From: Prochlorococcaceae cyanobacterium jk18x22bins.40
Lineage (GTDB): Bacteria; Cyanobacteriota; Cyanobacteriia; PCC-6307; Cyanobiaceae
Assembly (NCBI GenBank): GCA_022826155.1
Contig: JAJDVL010000002.1
Coordinates: 1 to 53,163 of the forward strand
DNA length: 53,163 nucleotides
Direction: 5' to 3'
A program made the translations under genes and the position numbers. The notes under the pieces are model-generated. The model had not been told where the DNA came from, did no database searches, and worked only from the letters and a program-made list of their open reading frames with translations. Shown piece after piece: positions 38,912-45,511 of this stretch (positions are counted from its first letter, which is position 1; each line of letters opens with the position of its first letter).

Positions 38912-40222
38912 ATGACATTCCCCAGTTGGTTGGAACGGGGTCTGGCGGACCTGTTCCCCAATGCTGCCGATCAGCGGAACCACACCTTGTCGGCCCGGCT
39001 GACTGCAGCACAGCAGGTCAATCGCCCCCTGCGCGTGAAGCTGGGCATTGATCCCACCGCCAGTTCCATTCACCTGGGGCACACCATCCTCTATCGCAAG
39101 CTGCGGGCCTTTCAGGACGCTGGCCACACTGCGGTTGTGATCATTGGGGATTTCACCGCCCGGATCGGGGATCCCACCGACAAATCAACCACCCGCCCTC
39201 AGCTCGGCGCCCAGGAGGTTGAGGAGAACGCCCGCACATATCTGGAGCAGTTGCGCCCGATTCTGGATTTTGACACGCCGGGACGCCTGGACATTCAGCG
39301 GAACAGCACATGGCTGGCCAAGCTGGATCTGACCCAGGTGATCGGGTTGCTGGGCACGGCAACCGTAGGGCAAATGCTGGCCAAGGAGGATTTTGCCAAT
39401 CGCTATGGGCGGGGCGCCCCCATTGCCCTCCATGAGTTTCTCTATCCCCTCCTGCAGGGCTACGACTCCGTGATGGTCAAGGCGGACGTGGAGTTGGGGG
39501 GGACAGACCAGAAGTTCAACGTGGCCATGGGGCGGGATCTACAGCGTCATTTTGGCCAACCGCCACAATTCGGGCTGCTGATGCCCATTCTCACGGGCAT
39601 TGACGGCGTCCGGAAGATGAGCAAGAGCCTGGGCAACACCATCGGTCTTCAGGAGGATCCCCTCGCCACCTATTCCAAGCTGGAGAAGGTGGCGGATGCC
39701 GTGGTGGACGACTACATCACCCTGCTCACCGATCTGGATCCAGCAACTCTGCCCAAGGATCCCCGCCAGCGGCAAAAAACCATGGCCCTGGAGGTCACCG
39801 CCTGTCTCCATGGCAGGGAGGCTGCACGGAAGGCTCAGGCCGCTGCATCTGCAATTGTCTATACTTTTGATGCCTCCGCCTCCATCTCCGAAAACATTGG
39901 AACAGAGCAACAAATAAATGAACCAACTGAAGTTCCCTGCCCCTCCGTAACCCACGAAACAGAGGTACTCCGCAACGCGTCTCTAGCTTCTCTCCCTTGG
40001 GACTGGTCAACCCCCATTCCGGCCTATCAACTGCTGCATGGGGTCTTCAAATCTCAGGCAGGACTCAAAAGCACCAGCGACGCCCGCCGCCGTATCCAAG
40101 GGGGCGCTCTGCGTCTTAATGGGGAAAAGATCACCGATCCCAAAACGACCTTCACCCAAGAGGACCTGGAGGGGAAAGTGCTCCAACTGGGGAAAAAGGT
40201 CTTCTGCCGTCTGGTTGGCTGA
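38912..40222 (+). CDS. tyrS: Tyrosyl-tRNA synthetase
   Basis: Class I synthetase charging tRNA-Tyr, 436 residues. The HIGH-type motif is seen in [14 protein letters not shown] and the KMSKS signature in [15 protein letters not shown]. The C-terminal S4-like domain is [20 protein letters not shown]. Between catalytic and S4 domains (about residues 312-362) is an AT-richer stretch with Ser/Thr/Glu-rich sequence that seems longer than in relatives. It overlaps pyrF by 1 nt. Confidence 0.95.
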
Positions 40223-40989
40223 TGGGCGGTATGGGCAACACGGCGGATCTTCAGGCACTCTTGCCCACCTCCCCGGAAGAGCGGCTCATTCTGGCGTTGG
40301 ATGGGTGTGACGGGGATGGGGCCCTGGCGCTGGTGGAGGGGATCCCTGGGTTGTGCTGGGTGAAGGTGGGTTTGGAGCTATTCATCAGCGCGGGGCCTGC
40401 CATTGTGACGCAACTGCGTAGCCGTGGCCTTCAGGTGTTTCTGGATCTCAAGTTTCATGACATTCCCGCCACCATGGCTGGAGCCTGCCGCCGTGTCGCC
40501 CGGCTTGGAGCCGGCTTGCTCACGGTTCATGCCAGCGCAGGCACGGAGGCCATGGCCATGGCCATGGAAGCCACCGCCGAGGCCGCCATGGCTGCCGGCG
40601 TGTCTCCCCCCCTACTCCTGGCGGTCACCGTCCTTACCAGTTGGCAACCCCAGCCCTTCCGCCAGCAACTGGCCGTTGCGGACCCCCTATCAGCCCATGT
40701 GGAGCACCTGGCCCGGCTGGCGGCCCAGGCCGGTCTCCGTGGCTGCGTCTGCGCCCCCCGGGATGCTGCGCGGCTCCACCACCAGCAGCCCACCATGGCC
40801 CTGGTCACCCCCGGAATCCGCATCCACCGCATCCAGGGGGACGACCAGGCCCGAACCATGACGCCAACGGAGGCCATGGCCACGGGTGCCACATGGCTGG
40901 TGGTGGGTCGGCCCGTGACCCAGGCCGTGGATCCCGGCCTGGCGTTTGCCCAACTCTGCCAGCAGGTTGCCGCAACTCCCGCTGCCTAG
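40222..40989 (+). CDS. pyrF: Orotidine 5'-phosphate decarboxylase
   Basis: Makes UMP in pyrimidine synthesis. The 255-residue product has the catalytic LDLKFHDIPATMAGACRRVA, with Asp-Lys-Asp residues, and ends in the phosphate-binding region ATWLVVGRPVTQAVDPGLAF. ATG 40222 uses the last base of the tyrS stop, so the genes are coupled. It converges with the autotransporter gene with a 4-nt overlap of stop codons. Confidence 0.95.
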   Translation: MGGMGNTADLQALLPTSPEERLILALDGCDGDGALALVEGIPGLCWVKVGLELFISAGPAIVTQLRSRGLQVFLDLKFHDIPATMAGACRRVARLGAGLLTVHASAGTEAMAMAMEATAEAAMAAGVSPPLLLAVTVLTSWQPQPFRQQLAVADPLSAHVEHLARLAAQAGLRGCVCAPRDAARLHHQQPTMALVTPGIRIHRIQGDDQARTMTPTEAMATGATWLVVGRPVTQAVDPGLAFAQLCQQVAATPAA

Positions 40990-43826
40990 AACCGGGTTCC
41001 GAGCCGGAGGCTGGCGGCATAGCGGTTGTCGTCCGAACCCAGGGGGGACGCGGAAATCTCTCCACCCAACGACCACCGGTTCCAGTGAACCACTGCGCCC
41101 AGACCCAGCACCAACCGGGTGCGGTCGACCTCCGAGCCGAGGCGCTCACCCGAGACCTCCACGACTGTCTCCCCATCCCCAAGCACCCGCTCGACGCCCA
41201 GCCGGCCCCGCAGATCGAGCGTCCGTTCGTCGCCGTCCCATGTGTGCGTGGTTTCCGTGACGATGCCGAGGCCAGCGATGGACTGCGCTGCCTCCCGGAG
41301 TGAAACACGGGATCCAACGGCGTCCTGGAAGTCGTCCATGGAAACCTCCGAGTGGGTCAACCAGGCCTGGGGCGTGACCGACAGATGGTCAGCCAGTGAG
41401 AAACGCCGTCCCGCTTCGACACCGATGGACCGGACCGTCGCACCCGCTCCATCCTTCAGGGACCCCCGGCCGTCCCCGCGCAGGTCCGTGTCGTAGCGGG
41501 TCAACGAGACGCTGCCGCTGGCGTAATAGCCGACGGCGTTGTTCCAGGAGATCCCGGCTGACCCGCCGAAGCCCGAAGCGTCAATCCTGCCGCCGCCCGT
41601 CGCTGCGGCCACGTCCGCCGAGCCGTTCACATGGCGCAGGGCGACCCAACCGGTCATGTTCTGCTGTTGGGAAAACCCGAACTCCACCCCCAACTCGGTC
41701 TCGAAGCGGTTGAAATCGTAGGTTGCACCCACATGGGAGTGGTCCGGTTCGTAGGAGCCCTGGCCACCCGAAACCTTGATCCACGCCGGTGAACCGGGGA
41801 TGCGCAGCCGCTTTCCGGCCGTATCCTCCCCTTGGTCCAGCCGCAGCATGAACCCGGGCAACGCCTCGTAGACCGCTGCACGCGGCGCATAGGGGCTCAT
41901 GAAGTCTGTCAGCTTGAACACCCGTCCCGCAACGACCTCCGAGGGCTGAAGGGATACGTCGCGTGCGCCGTTCGGCGCCAACGCACCGGTTGCACCCGCT
42001 GTCTTGTCGTGCAGGACCACGCCGTTTACCGTGATTGTGGTCATGCCGTCGTCGTTCCTGATCTCACCTGCGATTGCCTGGCTCGGCAGGCGATTGTCCA
42101 AGGTCACGTCGATATCCAACTCGGCCCCCTCTCCCTCGGCCCGCACGGCGACACCGGAGTCCGCGCCAACGCTACCCTGGGGGCCAATTTCGACCCGTCC
42201 GCCCTGGTAAAGCCGTACTCCCGCCCCGACGACCGGTGAGTCTCCTTCACGATCTAAAATGGAGCCGCCCCACACGCGCCCGTTCACGACCACGTTCTGG
42301 CTGTGGATTTCGCCGCGGGAGCCACCCGGCTCTTCTGTCGGGACCGATACGCCTGCGGGGGCCTTGACCGGTCCCGTCCTGTCGCCAAATATCCGGCCGG
42401 TGAGACCCAGAAGGATGCCGGAACTTCCCGGCCCCTCCCCTGTAATCCTCCCGCCGTCCACGTGAACATCGATAGCGCCTTCGCCCGAGAAGTTGAATGA
42501 CCGAATGCCAGCGACAGTCTCTCCCGTCGCCTTAACAGTTGAATCGTGAACCGTAATGTCAACGTCACCCGTGCCCTCGTAGCGTTGCCCCCCGCCAATG
42601 CCCACGGAACGGTCGCCGCTCACCTCGATATCCACGTCTTGGGCGGCTATGCTGATAGGGCCGCCACCGTCATGCACGAAGGCAATCCCGCCGGAGTCTG
42701 CGCCGTTTACCACTATACTAGCGCGCTGTACATCAACGTCAACGTCGCCCGTACCACGATGGAAACCAGTAATGCCGTCGACATATCTTTGCCCATGGAC
42801 CTCAATGTTGACGTCTTGGGCATCAACGGAGAGATTTCCCTCTGAGTTCTTCCCCCAGTAGGCATAGATAATGCCGTTCGAGTTTTGACCTCCGCGGACC
42901 TTAATGTCAGCATCTCGCACATGGATGTTGGAGTTGCCACGGCCAAGGTGGTAGCCAAAGACTGCGTCATTCGAACCTGCGTCGCCGCTAACGTCGATTT
43001 CCACTTTTTGGACATCGACGTCGACATCTCCGTTGCCACTGTGGATAGTAGCAACGCCAGCGACCCAGCGGCCATTGCTTTTGATGGTGGAGTCCTGCAG
43101 GACCACGTTCAAGTAGCCCTCACTGCCCTGATATCCAACGATGCCGCCACTCCACGCCCAATCCTCATCATTATAATTAGAAACGTTACTATCAATGGAA
43201 ATGTTGCGGACGACGAGATCATGGTCGCCGCTGAACTCCTGGTCTGTATCATAACCGTCTCCACGATAGGCATGGATAGCATGAGGGAGTGACCATTCAC
43301 TGTTGATCGAGAAGGAACCGCCCGAGATTTCCGTGCGCAATGCGCCCGACTTCCCGTGATGGGCAACCGAAATCCCTCTCCCGTTCGAAGTCACGTCGGC
43401 GGAAGAGAAGAACGAGATGTTGCCGGTGTAGTCCGCATCCGTCTCGATCCTGACGGAGCTGTAGAGGGGGCGTCCGGAGACGGTGCCGACTCCACTGGGA
43501 AACAACAGTGGGTCGTCGTCGGAGTTGTCGCGGTCGTAGCGTATGGAGAGGCCATCAATGAACCGGATGACGATATTGCTCCTGTGGGCCTTGGTGAGGC
43601 GATACACGATGTTGCCGTCCGTGGCCGCATCGTAGTTCGAGGATGAGCAGACGATTGGCGCCCCGGCTGCGAGCGGACCGCATTCTTCCTCTGCCCGCGC
43701 CGCGCCAAAGGCGCCGAGTACAACGGTCACGAGGATGGCAGCGGCGCCCAGCGAGGGCATCCTTTGCGCCTGCCCCAGCCGAAAGCCCTGCTGGTTCATG
43801 TGTGGAAGAATGCGACTCCTATTCAT
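40986..43826 (-). CDS. Autotransporter with beta-helix passenger
   Basis: A ~946-residue surface protein from ATG 43826; ATG 43799 is an alternative. It has an N-terminal signal (AAAILVTVVLGAFGAARA|EE). The passenger (~30-650) includes a series of ~40-residue repeats at about 230-465, with units such as GDVDVDVQKVEIDVSGDAG, GNLSVDAQDVNIEVHGQRYV and GTGDVDITVHDSTVKATGET, a pattern of parallel beta-helix. The last ~270 residues form an autotransporter beta-barrel (SPAWIKVSGGQGSYEPDHSH onward), ending YAASLRLGTRF with the terminal Phe required for BAM insertion. Such proteins are typical of proteobacteria and rare in cyanobacteria. No secretion partner is needed beyond Sec and BAM. Confidence 0.88.
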   Translation of the reverse strand: MNRSRILPHMNQQGFRLGQAQRMPSLGAAAILVTVVLGAFGAARAEEECGPLAAGAPIVCSSSNYDAATDGNIVYRLTKAHRSNIVIRFIDGLSIRYDRDNSDDDPLLFPSGVGTVSGRPLYSSVRIETDADYTGNISFFSSADVTSNGRGISVAHHGKSGALRTEISGGSFSINSEWSLPHAIHAYRGDGYDTDQEFSGDHDLVVRNISIDSNVSNYNDEDWAWSGGIVGYQGSEGYLNVVLQDSTIKSNGRWVAGVATIHSGNGDVDVDVQKVEIDVSGDAGSNDAVFGYHLGRGNSNIHVRDADIKVRGGQNSNGIIYAYWGKNSEGNLSVDAQDVNIEVHGQRYVDGITGFHRGTGDVDVDVQRASIVVNGADSGGIAFVHDGGGPISIAAQDVDIEVSGDRSVGIGGGQRYEGTGDVDITVHDSTVKATGETVAGIRSFNFSGEGAIDVHVDGGRITGEGPGSSGILLGLTGRIFGDRTGPVKAPAGVSVPTEEPGGSRGEIHSQNVVVNGRVWGGSILDREGDSPVVGAGVRLYQGGRVEIGPQGSVGADSGVAVRAEGEGAELDIDVTLDNRLPSQAIAGEIRNDDGMTTITVNGVVLHDKTAGATGALAPNGARDVSLQPSEVVAGRVFKLTDFMSPYAPRAAVYEALPGFMLRLDQGEDTAGKRLRIPGSPAWIKVSGGQGSYEPDHSHVGATYDFNRFETELGVEFGFSQQQNMTGWVALRHVNGSADVAAATGGGRIDASGFGGSAGISWNNAVGYYASGSVSLTRYDTDLRGDGRGSLKDGAGATVRSIGVEAGRRFSLADHLSVTPQAWLTHSEVSMDDFQDAVGSRVSLREAAQSIAGLGIVTETTHTWDGDERTLDLRGRLGVERVLGDGETVVEVSGERLGSEVDRTRLVLGLGAVVHWNRWSLGGEISASPLGSDDNRYAASLRLGTRF

Positions 43827-43906: not shown

Positions 43907-44434
43907 TCAAGCCAGGTTGCGCCGTGTGGCCCTTGCAATCTGGGCAATGGCCTGGCGCTGGGCAGCGTCGTAGTTCCAGCGCTCCAGAAACGCCACGTCC
44001 GCACCGTGGCCCTCGGTTGCCGCCAGCAGTTGGTCGAGGCGTTGCCGGACGATCGGAGGATCCAGTCGGGTGAGGAGGGCCTGGGCGCGCCGTTGCACTT
44101 GCAGGGACCCTTTGGCCTGCTCCCCATGCCCCTGTTGCTGATGCTCAACGGCCATGGCGGTCCCCATGGCCAGGTTGCGGACCACCAGGTCCACCACCGC
44201 CTTCCCACCACGGTGGAGCTGCTCCACGATGGGGGTGGGAGGGTGATCCAGCAAGGGGCCAGGCCCTGCCAGGGCCACCACAAAAAAGCCACGGCGCCCA
44301 TCGGCGCTGGTCAGGAGACCTGCCAACTGCTGGGCCAGCGCCTCAGCGGTCATGTCGCCCGCCTGCCATTGCCGCAGCCAGAATTCTGTGCGGTTGATGG
44401 CCTCGGCAAAGGACAGGGGTTGCTCCGGGTGCAT
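43907..44434 (-). CDS. Conserved cyanobacterial hypothetical protein
   Basis: A 175-residue, mostly helical protein beginning MHPEQPLSFAEAINRTEFWL. Recognisable conserved stretches are RRGFFVVALAGPGPLLDHPP, VDLVVRNLAMGTAMAVEHQQ and VAFLERWNYDAAQRQAIAQI. As I recall, picocyanobacteria keep a similar gene beside era. Function unknown. ATG 44452 would add six residues; longer frames overlap the leader of era. A small hairpin lies at the 3' end. Confidence 0.75.
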   Translation of the reverse strand: MHPEQPLSFAEAINRTEFWLRQWQAGDMTAEALAQQLAGLLTSADGRRGFFVVALAGPGPLLDHPPTPIVEQLHRGGKAVVDLVVRNLAMGTAMAVEHQQQGHGEQAKGSLQVQRRAQALLTRLDPPIVRQRLDQLLAATEGHGADVAFLERWNYDAAQRQAIAQIARATRRNLA

Positions 44435-44560
44435 GTCTCTCGCTACGCCCATGGCCGCGGGCTTGGCACTCTGCCACAAGATGCCACAAGGTGGGTGAAC
44501 CGCAGCCCACTTGCTGGCAAGCACTGCCAAGCTTGAGATTGGGAGACCCATGCGCTGCTC

Positions 44561-45511
44561 TTGTCCCAGTTCCAGTCCCAAGCCTCGGCGGTCAAGGGTG
44601 ACCACGGCGTTGACCCATCCCCTCCGGGGTATCGCTCCGGCTTTGTGGCCCTGATTGGGCGCCCCAACGTGGGCAAGTCAACGCTGCTCAACCAACTGGT
44701 GGGCCACAAGGTGGCCATCACCTCCCCTGTGGCCCAGACAACCCGCAACCGCCTGCGGGGCATTCTGACCCGGGCCACGGCCCAATTGGTGCTGCTGGAC
44801 ACCCCCGGCATTCATAAACCCCACCACTTGCTGGGGGAGCACTTGGTCAAGGTGGCGCGTTCAACCATTGGCGAGGTGGATCTGGTGTTGCTGCTCATGG
44901 ATGGCAGCGCGCCACCAGGCCGTGGGGACGCCTACATCGTCCAACTGCTGCGCCACTGCGCCGCTCCGTTGGTGGTGGGTCTCAACAAGCAGGACCTGGT
45001 CACCCCCAAGCGGGCCGCAGAGTTGCAGCGCAGCTACCGCAGCTTGGTGGGCGGTTGTCCGTTTTTTGGTTTCAGCGCCTTGAGTGGCGCTGGCTGTGAA
45101 CAGTTGGTGGAAGGCCTGAGCCAACATCTACCGGAGGGACCCCATCTTTATCCGTCCCATGCTGTCAGTGATCAGCCGGAGCGTCTGCTGCTGGCGGAGC
45201 AGATTCGTGAGCAGGTGTTGCACCTGACCCGGGAAGAGGTGCCCCACAGCGTAGCTGTGCATATTGACGACATTCGGGAAGAGCGTCAATGCACCCGCAT
45301 CACCGCCGTGGTGCTTGTGGAGCGACGGAGCCAGAAGGGGATTCTGATTGGCAAGGGGGGGACCATGCTGAAAACCATCGGCACCGCTGCACGGTTACAA
45401 ATGCAGACCTTGATTGCCGGTCCTGTCCACCTGGAGCTGTTTGTCAAGGTGTCTCCCCACTGGCGCCGCCACCCGGGACGCCTGGCGGAGCTGGGCTACG
45501 GCCATGGGTGA
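44561..45511 (+). CDS. era: GTPase Era
   Basis: Era assists 16S rRNA maturation and 30S assembly. The 316-residue product has G1 GRPNVGKSTLLNQL, G3 DTPGIHKPHH, G4 GLNKQDLV, and a C-terminal KH domain with GILIGKGGTMLKTIGTAARL. The only start before the G1 motif is TTG 44561, since an in-frame stop lies at 44534-44536. It is the first gene of a row of closely packed genes era-lyase-trmD-ispF-larB. Confidence 0.95.
   Translation: MSQFQSQASAVKGDHGVDPSPPGYRSGFVALIGRPNVGKSTLLNQLVGHKVAITSPVAQTTRNRLRGILTRATAQLVLLDTPGIHKPHHLLGEHLVKVARSTIGEVDLVLLLMDGSAPPGRGDAYIVQLLRHCAAPLVVGLNKQDLVTPKRAAELQRSYRSLVGGCPFFGFSALSGAGCEQLVEGLSQHLPEGPHLYPSHAVSDQPERLLLAEQIREQVLHLTREEVPHSVAVHIDDIREERQCTRITAVVLVERRSQKGILIGKGGTMLKTIGTAARLQMQTLIAGPVHLELFVKVSPHWRRHPGRLAELGYGHG

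What the first reader, a model, noticed from the sequence alone, without database searches (positions are those of the whole stretch)
40986..43826. Classical autotransporter in a cyanobacterial chromosome
Signal peptide, repeated beta-helix passenger and a C-terminal barrel ending in Phe are all visible. Type Va autotransporters are characteristic of proteobacteria and I know of few in cyanobacteria. It may be acquired and used in surface contact with a host.
Basis: partly seen in the sequence, partly recalled or inferred. Interest (0 to 1): 0.7.

Follow-up and report, generated by a model that had tools for sequence, protein, structure and literature searches.

The report
Borrowed surface autotransporter in symbiotic Synechococcus
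This gene encodes a genuine self-secreting surface protein (a type Va autotransporter) that a small Synechococcus-like cyanobacterium, probably a sponge symbiont, most likely acquired whole from an alphaproteobacterium, although autotransporters in general are not rare in its family.

Summary
The AlphaFold2 model matches Vag8 (passenger) and AIDA-I, NalP and EspP (barrel).

The gene sits tail-to-tail with pyrF inside a cyanobacterial tyrS-pyrF-[AT]-hyp-era block. Congeners show one gene, two tandem copies, broken or partial copies, or an empty site, so it is a real chromosomal insertion and not a binning artefact.

Its relatives are alphaproteobacterial. The closest full-length homologue outside the genus is 36% identical over 742 aa, passenger included. 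A Pseudomonadota barrel profile gives 180 bits, a cyanobacterial one 7-9. Eight other barrel hits in the same genome belong to other lineages. Tree support is high, but an AU test does not formally reject cyanobacterial monophyly (p about 0.11-0.13).

The claimed rarity is overstated: about 29% of sampled Cyanobiaceae and 10% of sampled cyanobacteria carry PF03797. HGT of similar proteins into sponge Synechococcus was already proposed (PMC6506613). The most likely role is a tethered adhesin; host and function are inferred. New member of a known kind, moderate interest.

The parts
40986..43826 (-). type Va autotransporter gene, 946 aa plus stop (start ATG at 43826, alternative ATG at 43799)
43692..43826 (-). 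N-terminal extension and Sec-type signal peptide, about residues 1-45 (cut after ...GAARA); approximate
   Evidence: read from sequence; h-region and AEEECG conserved in two orthologues
42402..43691 (-). passenger: parallel beta-helix (confident from ~residue 120 to ~475), with ~30-residue imperfect repeats; two conserved cysteines near its N-end (residues 49 and 60)
   Evidence: AlphaFold2; VIA-align Z 30.6 to the Vag8 passenger over 395 residues; periodicity; cysteines
41892..42401 (-). C-terminal passenger cap / junction region, about residues 476-645, partly low confidence; includes the GAGVRLYQGGRVEIGPQGSVGADSG segment shared with the alphaproteobacterial homologue
41835..41891 (-). alpha-helical linker expected to fill the barrel pore (residues 646-664, YAPRAAVYEALPGFMLRLD)
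   Evidence: motif shared with the alphaproteobacterial homologue
40989..41786 (-). 12-stranded translocator barrel (PF03797), residues ~681-946, C-terminal Phe
40222..40989 (+). pyrF; its stop codon overlaps the autotransporter stop tail-to-tail by 4 bp
38912..40222 (+). tyrS, conserved flank
43907..44530 (-). conserved hypothetical gene upstream of the autotransporter on the same strand; borders the empty site in congeners (longest ORF 43907-44605)
44561..45511 (+). era GTPase, conserved flank

Best explanation
It is a complete type Va autotransporter that entered an ancestor of this Synechococcus-like genus as a whole gene (passenger plus barrel) from Alphaproteobacteria and inserted between the convergent genes pyrF and hyp. 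Expected working: export by Sec; the C-terminal barrel is assembled into the outer membrane by the native Omp85 machinery; the passenger threads through the pore with the linker helix left inside; it then folds outside as a long beta-helix rod that stays attached and acts as an adhesin or recognition surface, probably towards the host or neighbouring cells. Shown: domain architecture, predicted fold, locus insertion polymorphism, alphaproteobacterial sequence affinity, purifying selection. Inferred: secretion, retention on the surface, adhesin role, sponge as the partner.
For: Domain and fold: PF03797 and TIGR01414 over cut-off; AF2 model with beta-helix, helix and 12-strand barrel; PDB matches EspP, Hbp, AIDA-I, NalP and BrkA for the barrel and Vag8 for the passenger (Z 30.6 over 395 residues). 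No enzymatic domain found in the passenger. Origin: the barrel joins alphaproteobacterium G354 with 100/99 support inside a Pseudomonadota side (100/99) of a 60-barrel tree; Pseudomonadota profile 180 bits against 7-9 bits for cyanobacterial profiles; full-length blastp to G354 36% over 742 aa, E 1e-91, with passenger; G060 homologues match back to residue 413 at 36%; fragments in G073 and G438 are 47-55% identical over 122 and 40 residues. Gammaproteobacteria gave nothing better than 32%. Insertion: tyrS-pyrF-hyp-era intact but without the gene in G001 and G003 (gaps of 45 and 12 bp), two tandem copies in G004, broken or partial copies at the hyp-era side in G006 and G002. Selection: dN/dS about 0.3 in both domains.
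Against: The AU test does not reject a tree uniting all cyanobacterial barrels (p 0.107 and 0.132), and cyanobacteria plus G354 fit as well as the free tree (p 0.53), so the direction of the window/G354 transfer rests on profile scores and taxon spread, not on rooted topology. The alphaproteobacterial rows were chosen by similarity to the window. GC of the gene (0.62) is like its surroundings, so composition gives no support for recent transfer. No expression, localisation or binding data exist. That the host is a sponge is inferred from kinship with known sponge Synechococcus, not shown by a tool.
Confidence: 0.72

Rival explanations
1. Vertically inherited cyanobacterial autotransporter: an old cyanobacterial barrel kept in this genus and lost elsewhere, with similarity to Alphaproteobacteria due to slow evolution or to a transfer out of cyanobacteria.
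For: PF03797 is common in Cyanobiaceae; AU test p 0.107-0.132 does not reject cyanobacterial monophyly.
Against: The barrel scores 180 bits on a Pseudomonadota profile and 7-9 bits on cyanobacterial ones; none of the 30 cyanobacteria outside the genus searched with the protein has a match; empty sites in congeners.
Confidence: 0.12
2. Acquired autotransporter whose passenger is not an adhesin but serves phage or grazer defence, cell-cell aggregation or a carbohydrate-active function on the cell surface.
For: Beta-helix folds of tailspikes and alginate epimerases or lyases also match the passenger (Z 17-24); passenger function cannot be read from the fold.
Against: No Pfam enzyme domain; the best passenger match is the autotransporter Vag8; no PADLOC match.
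Confidence: 0.3
3. Binning or assembly artefact: an alphaproteobacterial gene misplaced into a cyanobacterial bin.
For: The alphaproteobacterial affinity itself; the genome is a draft of 51 contigs.
Against: The gene lies inside a 53-kb contig between cyanobacterial genes, and junctions recur in independent genomes G004 (99.9-kb contig), G006 and G002. GC matches the surroundings, not the 0.71 of the alphaproteobacterial homologues.
Confidence: 0.01

Closest known systems
   Same: Passenger repeats, GAGV..GGRV junction, APRAAVYEALPGF linker and barrel; 36% over 742 aa
   Different: Higher GC (0.71); that copy is frame-disrupted in the barrel; N-terminal third of the passenger not alignable
Classical type Va autotransporters AIDA-I, EspP, NalP, BrkA, Vag8
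   Same: 12-strand barrel with helix, PF03797, beta-helix passenger
   Different: 13-19% sequence identity; passenger specificity unrelated or unknown; no EspP-type Asn at a cleavage site noticed in the linker helix (by eye)
FN3/cadherin plus autotransporter-domain proteins of 'Ca. Synechococcus feldmannii' and 'Ca. S. spongiarum' SP3 (PMC6506613)
   Same: Autotransporter-domain proteins in sponge Synechococcus, with FN3 mixed-domain proteins suggested there to come from Alpha- and Gammaproteobacteria
   Different: The window protein has no FN3 or cadherin domain; whether those barrels are of the window's type could not be tested here
Other autotransporter-like genes of the same genome (GDSL lipase type on C14; Calx-beta and LRR types on C30, C33, C35)
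   Same: PF03797 hit at the C-end
   Different: Different passengers and barrels from separate lineages

Membership tests
Type Va (classical) autotransporter | C-terminal PF03797 translocator barrel of 12 strands | tested here: met
Type Va (classical) autotransporter | Passenger and barrel in one polypeptide, passenger N-terminal | tested here: met
   single ORF
Type Va (classical) autotransporter | Sec signal peptide | tested here: inconclusive
   clear by eye (n-, h- and c-region, ARA|EE), conserved in orthologues; no predictor run
Type Va (classical) autotransporter | Alpha-helical linker in the pore | tested here: met
   predicted helix 646-664 preceding the barrel; alignments to AIDA-I and NalP start at 647
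Type Va (classical) autotransporter | Beta-helix passenger (common, not universal) | tested here: met
Type Va (classical) autotransporter | C-terminal aromatic outer-membrane signal | tested here: met
   ends ...LRLGTRF; orthologues end ...LGTQF. Comparison with native OprB porins was impossible: no PF04966 hit in this genome
Type Va (classical) autotransporter | Passenger actually secreted to the cell surface | not testable with these tools
   needs experiment
Alphaproteobacterial autotransporter lineage (origin) | Nests with alphaproteobacterial barrels, not cyanobacterial ones | tested here: inconclusive
   support 100/99 and profile 180 against 7-9 bits, but AU p 0.107 and 0.132

The most novel reading that the evidence does not exclude
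A cyanobacterial symbiont took a complete host-binding autotransporter from a co-resident alphaproteobacterial symbiont of the same sponge, so that unrelated symbionts share one surface ligand for one host, and the gene is still turning over (duplication, decay, loss) between Synechococcus species in different hosts.
Probability: 0.3. Interest if true: 0.65.

Novelty: new member of a known kind. Interest (0 to 1): 0.45.

Why it matters
It is a well-anchored case (empty site, single insertion point, full-length homology) of a whole secretion-plus-adhesin module crossing from Proteobacteria into cyanobacteria and working, by inference, with the cyanobacterial outer-membrane assembly machinery. 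It gives a concrete candidate for how a Synechococcus-type symbiont touches its host, and a presence/absence pattern across species that can be compared with host range.

Tried and rejected
PDB sequence search found nothing at E up to 1, so solved-structure kinship had to come from folds. Own-genome porin C-terminal comparison failed because OprB has no match. GC gave no HGT signal. Whether the gene was gained once or lost repeatedly is unresolved: the species tree from tyrS, pyrF and era is weakly supported. The names of G354 and G060 could not be recovered (L076 is titled only 'uncultured Alphaproteobacteria bacterium'). Papers on the MAG series of G004 (SB0662) were not found. A defence role was checked in PADLOC: none. 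AU tests were run on two taxon sets, and neither rejected the rival topology.

Full report
CHECK. The coordinates given are exact: ATG at 43826, stop at 40986, minus strand, 946 aa. Pfam gives the autotransporter beta-domain at 86.6 bits (cut-off 26), NCBIfam TIGR01414 at 93.3 bits. The N-end reads as a Sec signal peptide (LGAAAILVTVVLGAFGAARA|EEECG), conserved in two orthologues. The passenger is rich in G, S, V and D and self-similar at offsets of 31 and 29 residues (z 4.5 and 3.6).

STRUCTURE. AlphaFold2 from a 25-row alignment (mean pLDDT 73.9, pTM 0.58) gives a long beta-helix (most blocks 85-95 between residues 200 and 470), a poorly predicted junction (477-506, 611-646), a helix at 646-664 and twelve barrel strands at 681-945. 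Foldseek against the PDB ranks EspP, Hbp, AIDA-I, AaaA, EstA, BrkA and NalP first. VIA-align gives Z 30.6 to the Vag8 passenger over 395 residues, 30.5 to AIDA-I and 29.7 to NalP for the barrel. Sequence search of the PDB finds nothing.

LOCUS. The flanking genes are tyrS, pyrF, a conserved hypothetical gene, era and a CpeS-like phycobiliprotein lyase, so this is a cyanobacterial chromosome. pyrF and the autotransporter overlap tail-to-tail by 4 bp. Among the nine other species of the genus held, G001 and G003 have pyrF and hyp separated by 45 and 12 bp with no gene between them; G004 (Synechococcus sp. SB0662_bin_14, identified through L069) has two tandem copies 66-68% identical to the window's; G006 has a copy in pieces, with a frame break and an in-frame TGA, next to hyp-era, and G002 a copy cut by a contig end at the same place. 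G008 has lost most of hyp; G005, G007 and G009 show no such gene. The shared position argues for one insertion with later duplication, decay and loss. A species tree was too weak to count events.

DISTRIBUTION. PF03797 is not rare in the group: nine matches in this genome, 86 of 300 sampled Cyanobiaceae and 40 of 388 of the class over cut-off, many in single-contig genomes. The window's own type is another matter: searched by protein among 39 relatives it is found in G002, G004 and G006 only.

ORIGIN. Outside the genus the best matches on plasmids are mostly Rhizobiales, and those in GTDB genomes are Alphaproteobacteria, mostly Rhizobiales (with some Burkholderiales), at about 27-36%. Gammaproteobacteria give no better than 32%. 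Two uncultured alphaproteobacterial lineages stand out: G060 (OY282363, two paralogues, similarity reaching back to residue 413) and G354, 36% over 742 aa including the passenger, E 1e-91. In a 60-row barrel tree the window type joins G354 at 100/99 within a Pseudomonadota side at 100/99, while the genome's other barrels that were included fall in three separate cyanobacterial groups. Profiles made without the window type, G354 or G060 score the window 180 bits (Pseudomonadota) against 6.9-9.3 bits (cyanobacterial). Caveat: forcing all cyanobacterial barrels together costs 18.6-20.2 log-likelihood units but is not rejected by the AU test (p 0.107, 0.132), and joining G354 to the cyanobacteria is no worse than the free tree (p 0.53). 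The tree therefore establishes the pairing with G354 but not, by itself, the direction. The direction rests on the alphaproteobacterial character of the barrel, its spread over several alphaproteobacterial lineages (G354, G060, and fragments in G073 and G438) and the empty sites in Synechococcus. GC is ameliorated (0.62 against 0.71 in the alphaproteobacterial homologues), so the transfer is not recent.

SELECTION. dN/dS is about 0.29-0.35 between the window and either G004 copy in both passenger and barrel; amino-acid identity is 66% in the passenger and 70-78% in the barrel, against 85% for pyrF and 94% for era. This is a functional, fast-evolving surface protein, not a decaying one, in these two species.

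MECHANISM. Sec export, barrel insertion by the native Omp85 machinery, translocation with the linker helix in the pore and folding of a tethered beta-helix rod follow from established type Va biology. They are inferred here, not shown. An adhesin role is a common use of enzyme-less beta-helix passengers and fits a symbiont, but tailspike and polysaccharide-lyase beta-helices also match the fold, so a glycan-binding or other surface role remains open.

PRIOR KNOWLEDGE. PMC6506613 (2019) reported FN3- and cadherin-bearing proteins with autotransporter domains in 'Ca. Synechococcus feldmannii' and a similar architecture in one 'Ca. S. spongiarum' strain, and suggested that the FN3 mixed-domain proteins came from Alpha- and Gammaproteobacteria. 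The general idea is thus known; the gene described here, with its insertion site and its alphaproteobacterial full-length homologue, appears to be a new instance. The papers listed by the searches were not seen to describe it; most were judged from title and abstract only.

Noticed in passing
L204:4898-7048 (-), genome contig C14: A 717-aa GDSL-lipase autotransporter (PF00657 plus PF03797 at 108.6 bits), EstA-like in architecture, in the same genome; relatives in G001, G002 and G006 (genus_B of the tree).
   Followed up: partly
L212:2178-6026, L213:1611-6752, L215:3711-6092, L211:1524-8756: Large proteins of the same genome, three with Calx-beta (one also with leucine-rich repeats), with a divergent autotransporter-like barrel: a separate family of probable surface proteins of this genus.
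   Followed up: partly
Cyanobiaceae genus g57: G681, G625, G604, G615: Open frames of about 4,700 to 10,770 aa carry a PF03797 barrel, split in the profile match by an insertion. The size recalls SwmB of swimming marine Synechococcus (from memory); a giant autotransporter would be worth checking.
   Followed up: no
L044:2807-8607: Two tandem autotransporter copies in G004, closer to each other in the passenger (dS 0.41) than to the window copy (dS 0.69-0.78), but not in the barrel: possible gene conversion or a recent duplication.
   Followed up: partly
whole genome G000: No OprB porin (PF04966) match although Synechococcus elongatus rings in the same search.
   Followed up: no
L129: A 'Bacillus subtilis' SK6B4 contig carries a Rhizobiales-type autotransporter barrel, probably a contaminated or mislabelled assembly.
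   Followed up: no
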